This document shows, in pieces, positions 33,238 through 48,682 of a DNA stretch of 64,000 bases; positions within the stretch are counted from its first letter, which is position 1, and the number at the start of each line of letters is the position of its first letter. The notes beneath the pieces are model-generated. The model worked only from the letters and a program-made list of their open reading frames with translations. It was not told the DNA's origin and did no database searches. The stretch spans positions 620,001-684,000 of the forward strand of contig NZ_CP100404.1 in NCBI RefSeq assembly GCF_024218775.1. The letters are read 5' to 3'. Source of the stretch: Haloarcula marina (lineage in GTDB: Archaea > Halobacteriota > Halobacteria > Halobacteriales > Haloarculaceae). The translations under genes and the position numbers were made by a program.

Positions 33238-33309
33238 GGGCTCGTAGATCAGTGGCAGATCGCTTCCTTCGCAAGGAAGAGGCCCCGGGTTCAAATCCCG
33301 GCGAGTCCA
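33238..33309 (+). tRNA. tRNA-Ala (CGC), integration target
   Basis: This is a 72-base cloverleaf. The acceptor GGGCTCG pairs with CGAGTCC through one G-T wobble. The anticodon arm CTTCC-TTCGCAA-GGAAG gives anticodon CGC. The T arm is CCGGG-TTCAAAT-CCCGG and the discriminator is A. The 3' half is duplicated at 48647-48682, showing that a mobile element integrated here and left the gene whole on the left side. Confidence 0.95.
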
Positions 33310-33310
33310 T
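33275..33310 (+). repeat. attL, 36-bp direct repeat in tRNA-Ala
   Basis: This repeat covers the 3' side of the anticodon stem, the T arm and the acceptor end of tRNA-Ala plus one base. It is identical over all 36 bases to 48647-48682. Sequence differs immediately on both sides, which sets the repeat limits. Confidence 0.93.
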
Positions 33311-33648: not shown

Positions 33649-34074
33649 ATGGAGATTGGTTTGGTAAGCTGTACGAAGAGCAAACTAGAGCAGGCCGCCA
33701 AACCCGCCGAACTCTACACTGAGTCAGCGTTCTTCAGGAAGGCCCGAGAATACGTCGAAGCGAATCACGGCGCATGGTACATCCTCTCCGCAAAACATCA
33801 TCTGCTCCACCCTGACGGACCAACTATCGAGCCGTACGAAGAGACATTGAACGGGGCATCGGTGAGCCGGAAGCGAGAGTGGTCGCAAACAATCTACGAA
33901 CAGCTACAGAGAGAGGGTTTGCTCGTGGAGGACAACAGACTGGTGCTCCATGCTGGACGTGACTATACCGAGAAACTTCTTCCACTGCTCACAGATACCG
34001 GGGTAGGTATCGAGACGCCTACTGACGGCCTGCGCTACGGGGAGACACTCGCCTGGTACAATGAACGGATTTAG
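33649..34074 (+). CDS. DUF6884-like / YaaA-related protein
   Basis: This 141-residue protein begins MEIGLVSCTKSKLEQAAKPA and has the motifs LYTESAFFRKAREYVE, WYILSAKHHLLHPDG and IEPYEETLNGASV. These are the conserved blocks of a widespread small family (DUF6884) with remote likeness to YaaA. The conserved Cys/Lys at the N-terminus and the AKH block suggest a catalytic or nucleotide/DNA-binding role, but no function is established. It is the first gene inside the element and meets a convergent gene with a four-base stop overlap. Confidence 0.75.
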   Translation: MEIGLVSCTKSKLEQAAKPAELYTESAFFRKAREYVEANHGAWYILSAKHHLLHPDGPTIEPYEETLNGASVSRKREWSQTIYEQLQREGLLVEDNRLVLHAGRDYTEKLLPLLTDTGVGIETPTDGLRYGETLAWYNERI

Positions 34075-34784
34075 TCGAGTGCCGGAGTGGCGTCGATGTA
34101 TCCAGCAAGGGTGTCCAAAAACTCAGGTCGATAGTTCTCAGAGACATGATTGATATTCCATAGCCCCGACTCTCGAATATCCGATACTGGACTGTGGTGA
34201 CCGAGCCACTCCTCGTCCCTGGGGTCGATTAATTCGCTACCGACATTGCTCACCAATGCAATCGAATTTCGCTCAATGTAGGCACGGTCACTCTCTGGGC
34301 CGGGTTCATCATCGACCTTCACCCATAGAAACGGAAGGTCACGCAGGTATTCGCTGACGCGCTGTTCCATTTCCAGTTCTTCTAATCGTAATTCACGCGC
34401 GGCGCTTGACCCGACACCCCATTCAGGATACTCCTCGTGCTGTCCGTCCCGTTCTATCAGTGCTTCTCCGACACGTTTCCTGAATACTGACCCCCGATGA
34501 TTGCCTCCATCTTCGTAGGTTCCACGCTTGGCACCTCGATGCGTTCGCAACCGGTTCCAGAGTGAGGTTCCACTCCCTGTCGAAACGGCGTGGGTCCCTA
34601 TTCGCGTTAGCTGTAGCTGGTTAGTTGACTCCCTGGTTTCGCTCGGGTGGAAGAAAAAGTAGATTCCTCGGTCCGGCCAGTCCATCCGACCATGGCAGTT
34701 CTTGAGCTTCCGCTTCCCGCCGACTGTCTTCTCTAACTCATCCAGTAAAGAATAGAATCTATCGAGGTCTTGGCGTCGAGTCAT
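34071..34784 (-). CDS. Protein with GIY-YIG-like nuclease features
   Basis: This 237-residue protein runs from ATG 34784 (MTRRQDLDRFYSLLDELEK). The segment DWPDRGIYFFFHPSETRES, then LTRIGTHAVSTGSGTSLWNR and LRTHRG, resembles the GIY...YIG core and the following Arg-containing helix of GIY-YIG nucleases. A lone Glu in ALIERDGQHEEY could complete the site. It has no added DNA-binding domain that I recognise. It converges with the DUF6884-like gene, the stops sharing four bases. A nuclease role, perhaps in defence, is inferred. Confidence 0.65.
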   Translation of the reverse strand: MTRRQDLDRFYSLLDELEKTVGGKRKLKNCHGRMDWPDRGIYFFFHPSETRESTNQLQLTRIGTHAVSTGSGTSLWNRLRTHRGAKRGTYEDGGNHRGSVFRKRVGEALIERDGQHEEYPEWGVGSSAARELRLEELEMEQRVSEYLRDLPFLWVKVDDEPGPESDRAYIERNSIALVSNVGSELIDPRDEEWLGHHSPVSDIRESGLWNINHVSENYRPEFLDTLAGYIDATPALD

Positions 34785-34985
34785 TGAGTTAGTGGGCACG
34801 ACACATCGATGGGAATTAGTGTTTATCCTCGCACAATCTCTTTCAGCCAGAATGAGTTGCGGGACTCCTACGTACTGTAGGTGGTACGTGGTAGCTCCAG
34901 AACGTACTGACCGAGTTCCAACTCTTCTGTTAGCAGTGAGCGCGTGTCATGTCTCTATTACTCTTTGGGTGTACCGGCTATTTAG

Positions 34986-38005: not shown

Positions 38006-38087
38006 ACGTGGTTCGCTCTCCATTGGGAACCACAGTTGCCCGGTGTCCTCGCACCGGGTTCCTCTGACCGTGACTGACCAGAGCGGG

Positions 38088-38152
38088 TTATTCTGTGGTC
38101 CCTATTAGAACATAAAACATGTTAGATAATAAGACATTCTATGTCGGCATCG
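38088..38152. repeat. 65-bp imperfect direct repeat, copy A (flanks defence cassette)
   Basis: It aligns without gaps to 42790-42854 with nine mismatches. Both copies are AT-rich around TTAGAACATAAAAC and end in CTATGTCGGCATCG. Copy A lies just outside the McrC stop codon and upstream of the SWIM operon. Because the four cassette genes lie exactly between the copies, they are candidate recombination boundaries. A promoter function for the minus-strand gene to its left is also possible. Confidence 0.75.
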
Positions 38153-38171: not shown

Positions 38172-39497
38172 TTACAGCAAAAATGAGTTAGATAGGTTAG
38201 AAAATTCGTCATTAAATTCGATACCGGCTGAATGAATATCGCTTGAAAGAGGGAATACGATATCCCGTATTCGAACTGGTCCAACCCACATATTCACCCG
38301 GTTTTCGAAAGAGTAAGGGTGAATAATGAGTGCCTCGTTCAGACCTTGAGAAATAGCATAGGCAGCCAATTGTTGCAAGGTCTCAGGAGATGGACCACTC
38401 GGAATCTTATATTTTGCATCCATCACGCAAATTGGTTCATTTCTTTTGAACAGCAGAAAGTCAATCTCAAACCGCTTCTTGAAGTCATCATCAATCTGGA
38501 CGTTGACCTTGGACTCCACCTGGAATTCTGGAAGAAATTCTTCATCTAACCATTTCGAGATATACTCCTCGTAGAGTGTTGGCATGTGGACCGTGTAAGG
38601 TCTCGTGATTCGTTCACCAGCTTGAATTGTAGGTCCGAGTGCCTTCAGAAAAAAGTAGCAGAGACCGTGGATTTTCTCGTAAATCTGATTCTGGCGGTTG
38701 TATACTTTCCTCAGACAATCCTGGGGTGAATAGGGTTCGAGAGAAACATGATTTTCCAAAATCTTGTACGCTCGCCGGATATTATGCCGAATCTCAGGGG
38801 AGAACTGATGGCTTTCAAGAATCTTATGTAGCGTCCACAGAATTAGTTGGTTGTTTTCCGTATCTGTGGTCAGCTCTCGGGTTTTCATATGAAGCTGTGG
38901 GTTCCACGCCTCTCGGCTGCTTTTGGAGAAGTCGATACTCCCTCGGATGAAAGAAGACTGGACCTCCTGAGTCTCATACGATTTGTCTAACCCACGATTG
39001 CCAAGGGTGGAGACCTCGCTTGCTAATATTTCTGCCAAACGTTCGTAAACACCTTCGACCGATTCTACACGGTCAAATTGTTCATAGAATTCAAAGGATT
39101 CGAGACCTCCAACATATGACTCGACTGATAGAATGTTATCAAACGGTACCTTTGGTCTTAGTTCAATTGACCACCCACCAGAGAGGACCGCACTCCCTGC
39201 GTATCCCTCATTTGTAAGCACCCAGATATTATCTGTATTTTCGGCTGGAAAGGTAACACCTACCAGACTCCCGTATGCACTCAAGAGTTCTCGGACATTT
39301 TCGTTAGTTAAACCTGGAAGGTCATATTTGTTTCCGGATTGCGGGATGGGCGTCTGGATGTTCTCAGGAAGAAGAATTCGTTGCCGGTCGAAGCCCTCAG
39401 TTATCTCCTCTCTATGCTCTTCCCAGTAGTCCAGAAAGGCGTCGTAGTCTTCCTCCAAGTCGCTATAGAAAGATTCGAGTTTCGATTCTGTCATCAC
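38172..39497 (-). CDS. mcrC: McrC-like restriction endonuclease subunit
   Basis: This 441-residue protein has the McrC layout: an N-terminal domain that contacts McrB and a C-terminal PD-(D/E)xK nuclease. Nuclease residues visible are D346 (FEIDFLLF), D360 and K362 (VMDAKYK), with the following Q-rich helix LQQLAAYA. In McrBC complexes it cuts DNA when driven by McrB NTP hydrolysis. Its gene overlaps mcrB by four bases (ATGA). It is lower in GC than chromosomal genes. A methyltransferase gene close by suggests that this version may act on unmodified rather than modified DNA. Confidence 0.88.
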   Translation of the reverse strand: MMTESKLESFYSDLEEDYDAFLDYWEEHREEITEGFDRQRILLPENIQTPIPQSGNKYDLPGLTNENVRELLSAYGSLVGVTFPAENTDNIWVLTNEGYAGSAVLSGGWSIELRPKVPFDNILSVESYVGGLESFEFYEQFDRVESVEGVYERLAEILASEVSTLGNRGLDKSYETQEVQSSFIRGSIDFSKSSREAWNPQLHMKTRELTTDTENNQLILWTLHKILESHQFSPEIRHNIRRAYKILENHVSLEPYSPQDCLRKVYNRQNQIYEKIHGLCYFFLKALGPTIQAGERITRPYTVHMPTLYEEYISKWLDEEFLPEFQVESKVNVQIDDDFKKRFEIDFLLFKRNEPICVMDAKYKIPSGPSPETLQQLAAYAISQGLNEALIIHPYSFENRVNMWVGPVRIRDIVFPLSSDIHSAGIEFNDEFSNLSNSFLL

Positions 39498-40420
39498 GAT
39501 ATGTCAATGTCATCCTGAACCTTCTCCCACTCATACTGCTTCGCCTGCTCGATATCCTCGACGAAGTATTCTTTTAGATATGGCATCACCTCTGTCTCCC
39601 AGATATCGGGTAGTGTCTCGTCCAAATCATCACGGAGGAAGTATGTGATACCCAAATATTGATCCTGATTTCCAATCGCTTTTTGATTGATTTCTTTTAA
39701 AACATCAATAAGGCCACTCACGTCGATTCCAGTGCTTTCATGGTATATTTCGAGAGTCTCATACTTCGGCAGAATCTCGAACATCGCAAACCGTCTCCGG
39801 AGGGCATAATCAACGAGTGCAATTGAGCGGTCGGCAGTATTCATTGTGCCGATTATGTAGACGTTTTCGGGAATGCTGAATTCAATAGAGTCTCCATCAG
39901 GCGTCTGATACGGGAGGTCCACCTTTCGAAGGCCCCTGTCTTCGAGCGCATAGAGGAGTTCCCCGAATACAGCAGCCGTTTCCGCTCTGTTGATTTCATC
40001 AATAAATAGAACGAAGTTCTCAGTACTTTCTTGACCAGCTTTTTCACAGAAATTTACGAAATGTCCAGATTGTGGAGGATACTTCAGGACTCCCGCCCCC
40101 GTGTCATATTTCGGTCTTATACCCTGAATAAACTCTTCATAGGAATAGGACGGATGAAATTGGATTTCCTTCACCCTATCTGGATGACCAGCCAAATTTA
40201 ATGCAATCTGTCTGGCGATGTACGTCTTCCCTGTGCCCGGTGGGCCGTAGAATATCGATTGGCCTTTTCGTTCAGTCGACCGCCGCCAGAGACGAATTTT
40301 GTCTTCTTCGAATCCAATTTCGTCATTAATGTTTTCGATGCTGGGTACCTGCCGGATGCCTAATTGGTAGACATCGAGATTCCGCGGATGGTATCTCGGT
40401 CCACTTGATGAGCCACTCAT
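39494..40420 (-). CDS. mcrB: McrB-like AAA+ NTPase
   Basis: This 308-residue protein is almost only the AAA+ motor: Walker A GPPGTGKT at 59-66, Walker B FIDEINRAE at 139-147, and the McrB-specific motif MNTADRSIALVDYALRRRF at 193-211. Typical McrB proteins carry an additional N-terminal DNA-recognition domain. Here only about 35 residues precede the motor, so target recognition must come from another protein, perhaps the gene overlapping it upstream. It has four-base overlaps on both sides. Confidence 0.88.
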   Translation of the reverse strand: MSGSSSGPRYHPRNLDVYQLGIRQVPSIENINDEIGFEEDKIRLWRRSTERKGQSIFYGPPGTGKTYIARQIALNLAGHPDRVKEIQFHPSYSYEEFIQGIRPKYDTGAGVLKYPPQSGHFVNFCEKAGQESTENFVLFIDEINRAETAAVFGELLYALEDRGLRKVDLPYQTPDGDSIEFSIPENVYIIGTMNTADRSIALVDYALRRRFAMFEILPKYETLEIYHESTGIDVSGLIDVLKEINQKAIGNQDQYLGITYFLRDDLDETLPDIWETEVMPYLKEYFVEDIEQAKQYEWEKVQDDIDIS

Positions 40421-41139
40421 GAGATTACCTCGTATGGATGTTCATCTAACTGGTGGTTTTCGGTATCAAACAGGGTCTCGAATTCTGAATGCTCAGACCC
40501 ATCTTCTTGCTTTGGGAAACAGAAAACTGACCGAAATGTGGCTACCACCGTATCTCTATCCGGCTCCTCTTCGCGGTCGATAACGAAATTTCGGAGAAGA
40601 TAACCAGCCAGTGGATAGAACGCGAACTTATCGCCCTTGTTGAATTCTTCTACCGCGTTCGAAGCGTGGTCCTCCTCTAAAATGTAGTCATAAGGACTTG
40701 ACGGTTGGTCTGGAGCTACAGCCACAAAGGGACCACTCGTAGAGGGCATTGTTCCGCTCGTGGTAGAGTGGGCGAGTCGTCCAGCTACATGGTCTCCTGT
40801 CCACATATTCCGGCTTTGGACTGCCCAGGGGCGATAGTACTCATCGCCCTCCTCATTCCCGGGAACATTAATGAATTGGTTGAAAAGTTCTAAGAGTTCA
40901 TTCTCAGTTGGCCCAACTGTAGGATAATCGTCAGGGATACAGTAGGACTCGCAACATCCTGCCTCTTCGTATGTCAGTTTTCGATAGATGAGATAAGGGA
41001 GAAGAAACGTGTTATATGACTCACTCTCTAAGATACCCACACATTCTCGAACTACCTCTTCCTTTATCCCGTAAGTCCGAACTTCTGCCTCTTCCACACC
41101 ACCGTCCGTTAACTCATCATCTCCCTCACTCGAGGACAT
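40417..41139 (-). CDS. Unknown first gene of the McrBC operon, possible recognition subunit
   Basis: This 240-residue acidic protein begins MSSSEGDDELTDGGVEEAEV. It has a helical part with a Cys-rich turn (EEAGCCESYCIPDDYP) and then VQSRNMWTGDHVAGRLAHST, FVAVAPDQPSSPYDYI and a C-terminal segment with FYPLAGYLLRNFVID. I do not recognise a family. Its ATGA overlap with mcrB, and the lack of a recognition domain in that McrB, make a specificity or regulatory role plausible. A TATA-like element lies 33-38 bases upstream of its start. Confidence 0.7.
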   Translation of the reverse strand: MSSSEGDDELTDGGVEEAEVRTYGIKEEVVRECVGILESESYNTFLLPYLIYRKLTYEEAGCCESYCIPDDYPTVGPTENELLELFNQFINVPGNEEGDEYYRPWAVQSRNMWTGDHVAGRLAHSTTSGTMPSTSGPFVAVAPDQPSSPYDYILEEDHASNAVEEFNKGDKFAFYPLAGYLLRNFVIDREEEPDRDTVVATFRSVFCFPKQEDGSEHSEFETLFDTENHQLDEHPYEVIS

Positions 41140-41171
41140 GGGAATATGGTTATCCAGACACAGAAAATATG

Positions 41172-41178
41172 GATAAAT
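41172..41178 (-). promoter_or_regulatory. Candidate TATA box of the McrBC operon
   Basis: In gene sense this reads ATTTATC. It lies about 36 bases before the start at 41139, which would give a very short 5' leader. The 86-base gap to the methyltransferase stop suggests that the nuclease genes have their own promoter in addition to any read-through. Confidence 0.45.
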
Positions 41179-41225
41179 CTTGCTATGAGAAGTCCTGGTA
41201 GTGAGTCAACTGAAAACTGAATCCC

Positions 41226-42617
41226 TTATTCAGTGAAATCTTCTAATTTCTGGTCTTCGAACGATGTGTAGGTGTCCCAGTCCTCGTCAGTTTGCGAATC
41301 GAGACGGTTTTCGATTATCTTCTTATACTCCTCGGAGATTTCAGAACCGACCCATGGTCGATTCGTTTTTGTAGCAGCCACAGCAGTCGTCCCTGACCCT
41401 AAGAATGGGTCATAGACAAGGTCCGATGACTTTGCCTCTGTACTTAACATGATACACCTGCCAGGCAGTTCCACTGGGAAGGGAGCTGCGTGTTGGTATT
41501 CCCCCTTTGCCGGTGGCATCTCCCAGATTGGTCGAGTGTCCGGTTCGTCAGTGATTTCTCCGTTATTCACCTCAGATGTCTCTTCGCTTTCTTGCGATTC
41601 GAAGTCCCAAACGGTACGGAGATTCTCGTTCTCGAATTGAGAGCGGGCACCCAGTCGTTTGTCTCGGAAGTCACGCCATCGGGATTCGTTGAATTTGTAC
41701 CGCTTCGATTTCGAAATTAGAAGAATAACCTCGTGGCCGACAGTGGGACGGTCTCCAACTGTCTCGGGTACAACATTCTGCTTCCGCCAGACTATTACTG
41801 AGCGAACATAGAATCCACATCTCTGAAGACCTTTGCCGATTTGATAGGGAATGAGCGTTAGGTCCTTATCCTTCAGATATTCATGTCCTGCGGAGTGACG
41901 TTTGGCATTCAGGTCTGCCCAGGTCCTCTCCTCGTTCGTCGCCATCGCTGTCATCCGTTCCAGAGAAGTCTCACGAATCTCTGTCCGGGTGTTATAGACA
42001 TCCCCAACATTCCACCAGATTGTCCCGGTTTCCTTCAGAATAGGACGCATCCGAAGTAGGAACTCAAGCGTGTGTCGAATGTACTCTTCTGGGGTTGACT
42101 CCCCTCCAAATGCGATGTCAGTACCGTCTGACCACGAGACGTTGAATGCTTCAGAATATACCCGCATTCCCCAGTACGGGGGAGATGTAATTACAGTTTG
42201 CACACTCTCTTCAGGAAACATTTCAATATGGTCCACGGCTGACCCTTGATGGACCTTATTCGGGCCAAATTTGTTCTCGTCCCATCGGTTTCCATTCGGG
42301 TTCTCCAAGTAATCAATCAGGTCAGTAAGACCAGCTAAGCCATCGTCAGTGGTAAAGTGACTGTCGCAGAGAACCGCAGGCTGGGGCCTCATCCGCGCAT
42401 AAACCTCCGCTAATTGCTGTAGAGAGATGGTGGATGCTGCCGTTTCATCCAGACCTTCCCGAATCACCTTCTTCAGATGTGCCCTTCGCATCCCGACCAA
42501 ATTCGCGGCAATTTCTGAGTCGACACTCCGGTCCGGGAGGTCACTGATAATTTCTTCCCTACTGGCAGGAATTGGAGAGTGTGGTTTTATTTCCCGTTGA
42601 ATTTCGTCGTCAGTCAT
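41226..42617 (-). CDS. DNA methyltransferase, SPPY-type (probably N4-cytosine)
   Basis: This 463-residue protein has motif IV TSPPYWG at 144-150 early and motif I YDPFLGSGTTAV at 402-413 late, the beta-class order. SPPYW is most common in N4-cytosine enzymes, but N6-adenine cannot be excluded. An N-terminal region of about 110 residues includes a helix-turn-helix-like stretch (IAANLVGMRRAHLKKVI). A long insert (residues 220-370) probably recognises DNA. A strong Shine-Dalgarno AAGGAGGT precedes the ATG by 11 bases. It likely protects host DNA from the adjacent McrBC-like nuclease. Confidence 0.88.
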   Translation of the reverse strand: MTDDEIQREIKPHSPIPASREEIISDLPDRSVDSEIAANLVGMRRAHLKKVIREGLDETAASTISLQQLAEVYARMRPQPAVLCDSHFTTDDGLAGLTDLIDYLENPNGNRWDENKFGPNKVHQGSAVDHIEMFPEESVQTVITSPPYWGMRVYSEAFNVSWSDGTDIAFGGESTPEEYIRHTLEFLLRMRPILKETGTIWWNVGDVYNTRTEIRETSLERMTAMATNEERTWADLNAKRHSAGHEYLKDKDLTLIPYQIGKGLQRCGFYVRSVIVWRKQNVVPETVGDRPTVGHEVILLISKSKRYKFNESRWRDFRDKRLGARSQFENENLRTVWDFESQESEETSEVNNGEITDEPDTRPIWEMPPAKGEYQHAAPFPVELPGRCIMLSTEAKSSDLVYDPFLGSGTTAVAATKTNRPWVGSEISEEYKKIIENRLDSQTDEDWDTYTSFEDQKLEDFTE

Positions 42618-42789
42618 TATTAGATGTTACCTCCTTTTTCGGGGTCGGGATAGAATCACTTTTGGTTGCGCTTCTTTGCTCCGGCAGTCTTTCCAGTCCT
42701 CGGATGGTATTGTCCATCGTTCTCTAACCTCCAGAGAACACAAGTCGGTGCCTAATCACCGGCCTCTAACAGTATCTGGGTAGAGGCAT

Positions 42790-42854
42790 TTATTCTGTGC
42801 CCTCTATTAGAACATAAAACGTGTTGGATAATAAAAACATCTATGTCGGCATCG
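42790..42854. repeat. 65-bp imperfect direct repeat, copy B (flanks defence cassette)
   Basis: It matches 38088-38152 over 65 bases with nine mismatches and no gaps. It lies upstream of the methyltransferase gene, 173 bases from its start. With copy A it encloses exactly McrC, McrB, the unknown gene and the methyltransferase. Confidence 0.75.
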
Positions 42855-47505: not shown

Positions 47506-48519
47506 CTAAATTCCGTTCAGATAGTTCTCGCGCTGTCGTCGCCTCTCCTCTTTAGTCCGTCCGTCGTAGTGCTTTTCCAACACCTCTCGGCTCACGTCCA
47601 TCCGGTCTGACGCGATATCTTTGGGTACGTCAGCCATCCGGTGAGCAGTGATTGACCCTCGACGGACAGCGTGGGGAGCAACAGAGTCGGGACACTTGCT
47701 GGCCCCGTGGTAGGTAGCCGCCTCACATGCGACGGGGTCCCGGTCGTGGGGACACTCCTTCCCGATTGCACAGGGTCGCGTGAGCGTGTAGACCTGTGAC
47801 TGTATCGTGGTATAGTGGGGCCGACCACTACCGGTTCCGAGAAGTGGCATCCGGCCCTCGTCGTCAGGCGCTTTTGGATGCTCCGAATCGATGTAGTCCT
47901 GTATCACCGTACAGAGGTCGTCGCTGATGTTCACCTGTCGCTCGCCACGCTCTCGATTCTTGAGCTTCGTCGTCGGTCTGTTCACCAAGTCGAGATACCC
48001 ATCTTCGGGGTAGAAATCGTCAACATCCAGTGCCCGAGCCGCCCCGGTTCGCATCCCGGTTTCCCACAGCAGATAGAAGCTGACGTGACGGAGTGATGCG
48101 TACTCAAACTTATCGGCGTACTCAAGCACGGCTTCTGCTTCGTCTCTCAGGATGATTTGGTCAGAGACGTAGTCCTCTTCGGATACTTCGGGCATCGAGA
48201 CTCGTTCATGGACTCCCCGTGGGGCTACTTCGAGACGCTCGCAGAACTGGAGGAACTGACGAAGGGTTCCCAAGTGATAGTTCAAGGTTACTGGCGCTAC
48301 ATCCTCGGCTCGCCACTGCTTGAACTGGTGGAGATGTTTACCACTCACATCGTTCATATCATTAAGTCCGTTCACTTCGCTCCATTCCAAGAACCGCTGA
48401 AGCCTGCTTTTGTGGTTCTGGTGGGACGATTCTGCCAAGTCGTGCTTGCGGTCGGCAAGGTATGCATCGACCGCGTTTTCTGGTGTCATTGATTCCATTT
48501 TTGCTCCGTGTAATCGCAT
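47506..48519 (-). CDS. int: Tyrosine recombinase / integrase
   Basis: This 337-residue protein begins at ATG 48519 (MRLHGAKMESMTPENAVDAY). The frame upstream reads through attR and is rejected. An N-terminal SAM-like core-binding domain spans about 12-95. Catalytic residues seen are R157 (ETGMRTGAARAL), the H283-x-x-R286 pair (PHAVRRGSI) and Y318 (EKHYDGRT). A cysteine-rich insert (C250, C256, C265, C276) is common in haloarchaeal integrases. It lies next to attR and is transcribed into the element, so it is most likely the enzyme that inserted it into tRNA-Ala. Confidence 0.92.
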   Translation of the reverse strand: MRLHGAKMESMTPENAVDAYLADRKHDLAESSHQNHKSRLQRFLEWSEVNGLNDMNDVSGKHLHQFKQWRAEDVAPVTLNYHLGTLRQFLQFCERLEVAPRGVHERVSMPEVSEEDYVSDQIILRDEAEAVLEYADKFEYASLRHVSFYLLWETGMRTGAARALDVDDFYPEDGYLDLVNRPTTKLKNRERGERQVNISDDLCTVIQDYIDSEHPKAPDDEGRMPLLGTGSGRPHYTTIQSQVYTLTRPCAIGKECPHDRDPVACEAATYHGASKCPDSVAPHAVRRGSITAHRMADVPKDIASDRMDVSREVLEKHYDGRTKEERRRQRENYLNGI

Positions 48520-48540
48520 CAATCGAGCCAGAACCGACGC

Positions 48541-48555
48541 GCATCTGCTAACAGG
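48541..48555 (-). repeat. 15-bp motif, right-end inverted copy
   Basis: It is the exact reverse complement of 33577-33591. It lies 22 bases upstream of the integrase start and 91 bases inside attR, so it could be an integrase arm site, an operator for int, or both. Confidence 0.6.
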
Positions 48556-48646
48556 TAGGTGACTGAGCGAAGCGAGGGAGCCTGAGTGGACGAAGCCGGG
48601 TGGCCCGGTGTCAGATTCCCAGCCGAACGCCGTTGGCGTGAGGCTT

Positions 48647-48682
48647 GGAAGAGGCCCCGGGTTCAAATCCCGGCGAGTCCAT
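48647..48682 (+). repeat. attR, 36-bp direct repeat of tRNA-Ala 3' half
   Basis: It is identical to 33275-33310. Only the tRNA 3' half is present here, with unrelated sequence upstream, so this is the displaced copy and not a functional tRNA. Confidence 0.93.

What the first reader, a model, noticed from the sequence alone, without database searches (positions are those of the whole stretch)
38172..42617. McrBC-like restriction module with a separate unknown subunit and a paired SPPY-type methyltransferase
Three genes overlapping by ATGA (unknown, McrB motor, McrC nuclease) sit downstream of a beta-class methyltransferase. Ordinary McrBC cuts methylated DNA and has no methyltransferase. A methyltransferase partner is known for McrBC-like systems such as LlaI/LlaJI, which cut unmodified DNA. 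Here the McrB lacks its usual N-terminal recognition domain, so the target reader is probably the unknown 240-residue protein. This may be a distinct three-plus-one subunit architecture.
Basis: partly seen in the sequence, partly recalled or inferred. Interest (0 to 1): 0.75.

Follow-up and report, generated by a model that had tools for sequence, protein, structure and literature searches.

The report
Mobile LlaI-like methyltransferase–McrBC restriction cassette
A salt-loving archaeon carries, on a mobile element, a four-gene DNA-defence cassette (a DNA-marking enzyme, an unknown connector protein, a motor and a cutter) whose layout resembles the bacterial LlaI system, but whose connector protein is a rare haloarchaeal family that elsewhere partners quite different defence machinery, suggesting an interchangeable adaptor.

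Summary
In detail: MTase (42617-41226), a 240-aa unknown (U), a compact McrB lacking an N-terminal reader domain, and McrC lie co-directionally on the minus strand, with U-McrB-McrC overlapping. The cassette is cargo of a 15.4-kb integrative element bounded by a 36-bp exact tRNA-Ala direct repeat. The 'three-plus-one' layout is not new: LlaI (MTase, 252 aa, 337-aa compact McrB, McrC) and BsuMI are published precedents, and McrB-methyltransferase association is a known clade. What is new is U. It is a rare haloarchaeal family (11 of 392 genomes) with no Pfam, PADLOC or PDB match, always near a beta-class MTase. It sits next to compact McrBC in only two genomes; in the others it accompanies PbeA-PbeC-PbeD-type or other modules. 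The gene directly after U always carries the N-terminal peptide R-x-L-x4-L-[GDN]-[IL], in the deaminase-like proteins and in both compact McrBs, and almost nowhere else. Best reading: a LlaI-like restriction-modification system that cuts unmodified DNA, with U as the specificity/adaptor subunit that docks exchangeable effectors through this peptide. Activity, target site and docking are inferred, not shown.

The parts
41226..42617 (-). Beta-class (permuted) DNA methyltransferase, 463 aa, SPPYW motif IV (N4-cytosine more likely than N6-adenine by motif, inference)
   Evidence: Pfam N6_N4_Mtase 1.8e-46; motifs; PDB relatives CcrM and an N4-cytosine MTase
40417..41139 (-). U240: unknown third subunit, divergent member of a rare haloarchaeal ~200-aa family
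   Evidence: no family hit; profile finds relatives in 11 of 392 haloarchaeal genomes; alignment
39494..40420 (-). Compact McrB AAA+ GTPase, 308 aa, no N-terminal reader domain
   Evidence: AAA_5, NCBIfam McrB 1.9e-48, E. coli McrB PDB 6hz4 1.4e-48
40355..40384 (-). Putative docking peptide RNLDVYQLGI (McrB residues 13-22), shared with all genes directly downstream of U
   Evidence: pattern R.L....L[GDN][IL] scan; alignment to G244 McrB; profile test on G244 McrB
38172..39497 (-). McrC nuclease subunit, PD-(D/E)xK motif intact
   Evidence: PF10117 1.2e-27; 6hz4 McrC 3.7e-4; EID...DAK
42763..42854 (-). 92-bp direct repeat copy upstream of the MTase (leader/promoter-like)
   Evidence: the repeat finder D1, 78% identity
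38061..38152 (-). 92-bp direct repeat copy just downstream of McrC and upstream of the next ORF
   Evidence: the repeat finder D1
33275..33310 (+). Left attachment repeat: 3' end of tRNA-Ala(CGC) 33238-33309
   Evidence: 36-bp exact repeat; ARAGORN
48647..48682 (+). Right attachment repeat of the 15.4-kb integrative element
   Evidence: 36-bp exact repeat of the tRNA-Ala 3' end
47506..48666 (-). Tyrosine integrase of the element
   Evidence: Pfam phage integrase domains; PHROG integrase 1.6e-26

Best explanation
This is a mobile restriction-modification cassette of LlaI-like layout. The methyltransferase marks host DNA at its target sites. McrB (a GTPase ring) and McrC (the nuclease) form the restriction motor and cutter, which act on DNA lacking the mark. 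Because this McrB has no DNA-reading domain, U240 takes that place as a separate specificity/adaptor subunit: it senses the target or its methylation state, or contacts the methyltransferase, and recruits McrB through the N-terminal peptide RNLDVYQLGI. Shown: gene content, intact motifs, compact McrB, mobile context, conservation of U near MTases, and the shared peptide. Inferred: restriction of unmodified rather than methylated DNA, U as specificity/adaptor subunit, and physical docking through the peptide.
For: Intact catalytic motifs in MTase, McrB and McrC and family matches. McrB matches in 62 of 392 haloarchaeal genomes; only the two compact ones are linked to U. G244 has the same order MTase-U-McrB-McrC; its U is split by an insertion sequence with GTTCAGTC on both sides and near-identical terminal inverted repeats, and the contig-end sequence is repeated on other contigs, so the two contigs can be taken as adjacent. 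Every U locus examined has a beta-class MTase nearby. The gene directly after U carries R-x-L-x4-L-[GDN]-[IL] near its N-terminus in all of them, including both compact McrBs; in 956 distinct ORFs only one unrelated ORF has it in the first 50 residues. A profile built only from the deaminase-like proteins picks G244 McrB residues 14-31 as best match outside that family (E=0.0056; next 0.83). MTase-paired McrBC that cuts unmodified DNA is established for LlaJI, and LlaI and BsuMI have three restriction ORFs with compact McrB (PMC1459862; LlaI-like locus).
Against: No activity data. The window U and MTase are both divergent (about 23% to the rest of their sets), and the window MTase lacks the conserved C-terminal Cys-rich insert of the other U-linked MTases, so the MTase here may have been replaced or be an independent neighbour with its own promoter. 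The peptide profile does not score the window McrB significantly; it is supported there only by the exact pattern and the alignment with G244 McrB. U has no recognisable DNA-binding fold. The second U-McrBC locus has a disrupted U.
Confidence: 0.6

Rival explanations
1. Type IV-like: U-McrB-McrC is a modification-dependent restriction enzyme that cuts methylated foreign DNA (U being the methyl reader), and the methyltransferase is an unrelated neighbour or serves another purpose on the element.
For: Ordinary McrBC is modification-dependent; the MTase is separated from U by 86 bp and is not of the subfamily found with the other U genes.
Against: Every U locus has an adjacent or nearby beta-class MTase, including the second McrBC one; a methylation-dependent cutter next to an active MTase would be self-toxic unless its target differs.
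Confidence: 0.14
2. U is an inhibitor or regulator (immunity-like component) that restrains McrBC, for example until infection or loss of methylation, rather than a specificity subunit.
For: Co-translation just upstream of the effector, a rapidly diverging sequence, and a short effector peptide that could be a binding site for an inhibitor.
Against: The compact McrB would then have no reader at all; U is shared across mechanistically different modules near MTases, which suits a common coupling step better, though it does not exclude inhibition.
Confidence: 0.15
3. U acts with the methyltransferase (a modification cofactor) and is not part of the restriction enzyme.
For: U follows an MTase directly in most loci, and MTase and U diverge together in the window.
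Against: U overlaps McrB, not the MTase, in the window. In L013 and in the Pbe half of G244 the MTase is not upstream of U, while the downstream effector always is; the peptide is in the effector, not in the MTase.
Confidence: 0.11

Closest known systems
LlaI (Lactococcus pTR2030) and BsuMI (Bacillus subtilis) three-ORF restriction cassettes
   Same: MTase plus unknown ORF, compact McrB (337/343 aa) and McrC-like nuclease; McrB homologous (window McrB vs the 337-aa protein 30%, E 7e-19); LlaI-like locus shows a 252-aa ORF before McrB
   Different: The 252-aa LlaI protein shows no similarity to U (hhalign probability 1.5%); window MTase is a single beta-class SPPYW enzyme; archaeal
LlaJI
   Same: McrB/McrC-like restriction of unmodified DNA with cognate MTases (PMC1459862)
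   Different: LlaJI.R1 (585 aa) carries its own N-terminal domain (B3-type DNA-binding domain reported for this family, PMC12707154) and has two 5mC MTases; in the window no reader is fused
E. coli McrBC (Type IV)
   Same: Motor and nuclease homologous, NxxD motif
   Different: Window McrB has no DUF3578/ADAM domain; there is an adjacent MTase and a third gene
PbeABCD / CxC ABC-ATPase systems (PMC6459918, PMC10853773)
   Same: Their haloarchaeal MTase-linked versions carry the same U family; modification-based self/non-self discrimination
   Different: No PbeA, PbeC or PbeD in the window; McrBC takes the restriction role
Methyltransferase-associated McrB clades in the CoCoNuT census (PMC11090510)
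   Same: McrB-like GTPase with adjacent DNA MTase is reported as a prevalent association
   Different: That paper leaves the MTase-linked branch for a later publication; the passages read do not describe U

Membership tests
McrBC-type restriction (superfamily) | McrB AAA+ GTPase with Walker A/B and NxxD signature | tested here: met
   GPPGTGKT, DEINR, MNTADR; PDB McrB 1.4e-48
McrBC-type restriction (superfamily) | McrC partner with PD-(D/E)xK nuclease | tested here: met
   PF10117 1.2e-27; EID...DAK
Type IV McrBC (modification-dependent) | modified-base reader domain on McrB and no cognate MTase | tested here: not met
   McrB is 308 aa with Walker A at residue 59; MTase adjacent
LlaI/BsuMI-type McrBC-linked R-M | MTase plus three restriction ORFs with a compact McrB | tested here: met
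   Window layout against the LlaI-like locus and PMC1459862
LlaI/BsuMI-type McrBC-linked R-M | third restriction ORF homologous to the LlaI one | tested here: not met
   hhalign probability 1.5%; HMM 1.5 bits; the BsuMI counterpart was not at hand
LlaI/BsuMI-type McrBC-linked R-M | restricts unmodified DNA, protected by the MTase | not testable with these tools
   needs restriction assay and methylome
PbeABCD (CxC ABC-ATPase system) | PbeA HKD-helicase, PbeC ABC ATPase, PbeD DndE-like | tested here: not met
   The eight window proteins scanned give no Pbe hit; PbeC/PbeD occur in other U loci
MTaX1 (PF20296) | match of U to the MTaX1 profile | tested here: not met
   no match at E<=10 in seven U-bearing genomes; no hit in Pfam scan of nine U proteins

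The most novel reading that the evidence does not exclude
U is a shared hub protein of haloarchaeal modification-based defence: it couples a methyltransferase's self/non-self mark to interchangeable effectors (PbeA/C/D with zinc-site deaminase-like proteins, some carrying a GyrA-type DNA-wrapping propeller, or McrBC), which plug into it through a common ten-residue N-terminal peptide. The window shows the McrBC version on a mobile element, and G244 carries both versions around one methyltransferase.
Probability: 0.42. Interest if true: 0.72.

Novelty: new variant of a known kind. Interest (0 to 1): 0.52.

Why it matters
McrBC motors are usually aimed by a fused reader domain. Here aiming appears to be outsourced to a separate protein that is also found with unrelated defence machinery, with a short peptide as the plug. 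If true, it explains how archaeal restriction modules exchange motors and effectors while keeping one self/non-self sensor. It gives a simple handle (ten residues) to test modular rewiring, and identifies U as an unrecognised component of MTase-linked Pbe loci. If only the conservative reading holds, it is still an archaeal counterpart of LlaI on a defined mobile element.

Tried and rejected
U as Pfam MTaX1: rejected. U as a split-off McrB N-terminal domain: the U profile finds nothing in 902 ORFs around fused McrBs, including the cyanobacterial ones closest to the window motor. U as homologue of the LlaI 252-aa protein: rejected. U fold by AlphaFold2 plus Foldseek: confident model for the L013 relative (pLDDT 85.5, pTM 0.86) but no PDB or viral match with E<=0.001; the window U model is poor (67). 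U or the window MTase in viral contigs, and window U in plasmids: nothing. Close relative of the window MTase in 195 haloarchaeal genomes: none at E<=1e-30; best plasmid relative is in Rhodococcus fascians (33.5%) with no McrBC annotated within about 8 kb upstream. Empty site of the cassette in 32 congeneric genomes: none.

Full report
WHAT IS THERE. Four genes lie on the minus strand at the stated coordinates: a 463-aa methyltransferase, a 240-aa unknown (U), a 308-aa McrB and a 441-aa McrC. U, McrB and McrC overlap (ATGA, then GTGA or TGATG); the MTase is 86 bp upstream of U. Family matches are unambiguous for MTase, McrB and McrC and absent for U. Catalytic motifs are intact in all three enzymes. 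McrB starts its Walker A at residue 59, so there is no room for a reader domain; the McrB is of the common NxxD type. The genome has one McrC.

MOBILE CONTEXT. A 36-bp exact repeat of the tRNA-Ala 3' end occurs at 33275-33310 and 48647-48682 (tRNA), with a tyrosine integrase next to the right copy. This defines a 15.4-kb integrative element. G+C falls from about 0.64 outside to 0.45-0.49 over the cassette. The cassette itself is bracketed by a 92-bp direct repeat of 78% identity, one copy upstream of the MTase and one upstream of the next ORF. Read on the minus strand these look like duplicated leaders, suggesting the cassette was inserted as a unit; no empty site was found in 32 congeneric genomes.

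COMPACT McrB IS RARE AND GOES WITH U. McrB matches occur in 62 of 392 haloarchaeal genomes, but only two lie in short frames: the window and G244. Both are preceded by U. The two McrBs are 49% identical over nearly their whole length. In G244 the order is again MTase-U-McrB-McrC, split over two contigs. The U halves end at sequences resembling a transposon end: GTTCAGTC GCCTGTGTTTAATC on one side and GATTAAACATAGGC GTTCAGTC on the other, i.e. an 8-bp target duplication and near-identical terminal inverted repeats (read directly). The contig-end sequence recurs at the ends of other contigs of that genome. So an insertion sequence interrupts that U, and the contig adjacency is inferred from it.

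U ELSEWHERE. A profile of U finds relatives in 11 of 392 haloarchaeal genomes, 5 of 146 in the family, and in named species Haloarcula amylovorans, Halorubrum salsamenti, Halobiforma nitratireducens and Halovivax asiaticus. None were found in IMG/VR. Most loci read PbeA-like, PbeC, PbeD-like, MTase, U, deaminase-like protein (PbeC 5e-207 and a weak PbeD match of 0.014 for the L013 locus in PADLOC). Two (G039, G123) have other upstream genes before MTase-U-deaminase-like. In three loci the deaminase-like protein is extended by a DNA gyrase A-type C-terminal propeller. Krishnan/Aravind and Xiong et al. had noted MTases beside such ABC-ATPase (Pbe) systems (PMC10853773, PMC6459918); the passages read do not describe U by sequence. 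G244 carries both kinds: PbeA-PbeC-PbeD-U-deaminase/propeller and then MTase-U'-McrB-McrC.

THE SHARED PEPTIDE. The protein encoded directly after U begins with a short motif whatever its fold. A profile built from six deaminase-like N-termini, without any McrB, finds the G244 compact McrB at residues 14-31 as the best match outside that family (E 0.0056; next 0.83, among 2586 ORFs). The simple pattern R-x-L-x4-L-[GDN]-[IL], defined by those proteins, occurs in the first 50 residues of 19 of 956 distinct ORFs; 18 of these (several are partial or overlapping fetches of the same genes) are the genes directly downstream of U, including the window McrB (RNLDVYQLGI, residues 13-22), and one is unrelated. 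In L011 and L012 the motif lies further in only because the automatically chosen ORF start is too early. From the stray occurrences, the chance for one protein is of the order of 3e-4. The window McrB alone is not significant with the profile, so there it rests on the pattern and on its alignment with G244. The natural reading is a docking peptide for U. No interaction was tested.

HOW IT LIKELY WORKS. The MTase protects host sites. McrB/McrC translocate and cut DNA that lacks the mark. U reads the site or the methylation state, or contacts the MTase, and recruits McrB by the peptide. MTase and U are the fastest-diverging pair between the two McrBC loci (about 23-25%) while McrB is 48-49% and McrC about 35%, which fits a specificity role for U. 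However, the window MTase is not of the same subfamily as the other U-linked MTases (it lacks their Cys-rich insert), so re-pairing has probably occurred. The alternatives (type IV reader, inhibitor, MTase cofactor) are not excluded.

COMPARISON. The layout MTase plus unknown plus compact McrB plus McrC is the LlaI/BsuMI layout: PMC1459862 states that LlaIB and BsuMIB are 337 and 343 aa and encoded in three-ORF cassettes, and a Lactococcus plasmid shows 252 aa - 337 aa McrB - 464 aa. That this plasmid locus is LlaI is my inference from the 337-aa length and the neighbouring degraded methylase genes. U and the 252-aa protein have no detectable similarity. McrB-MTase association is described as prevalent in the CoCoNuT census (PMC11090510).

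LIMITS. No expression, methylome or restriction data. U has no fold match even for a confident model. Only two U-McrBC loci are known here, one with a broken U.

Noticed in passing
window 34071-34799 (-): Second candidate defence gene on the same element: strong match to PADLOC PDC-M57B (2e-78).
   Followed up: no
L010:10077-12140, L013:6983-9082, L015:2072-4051: Proteins joining a zinc-site deaminase-like domain (H-x-x-E instead of the usual H/C-x-E, CxxC kept) to a gyrase A C-terminal DNA-wrapping propeller, directly after U in Pbe-type loci. Stand-alone deaminase-like versions in L011, L014, L059-L062.
   Followed up: partly
L015:1-75 and L009:14072-14161 (G244): Insertion sequence with 8-bp target duplication GTTCAGTC interrupts the U gene of the second MTase-U-McrB-McrC locus; its end sequence recurs on other contigs.
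   Followed up: partly
L014:11217-13364 and L062:5417-7474: U loci without Pbe genes: a ~700-aa protein (ATPase of the Hsp90/histidine kinase type by eye only) and a 247-aa protein precede MTase-U-deaminase-like.
   Followed up: no
window 38061-38152 and 42763-42854: 92-bp leader-like direct repeat bracketing the cassette; may be the seam of cargo exchange on this element.
   Followed up: partly
alignment A6 (MTases of the other U loci): Conserved Cys-rich insert plus an 'AIQAVGISDAGKAKEFQ' segment between the N-terminal part and DPFxGSGTT, absent from the window MTase.
   Followed up: no
L078 (Calothrix plasmid) and L079 (Leptolyngbya plasmid): Closest fused McrB motors outside haloarchaea (46-48% identity) carry different N-terminal domains, suggesting the window motor came from ordinary fused McrBs.
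   Followed up: partly
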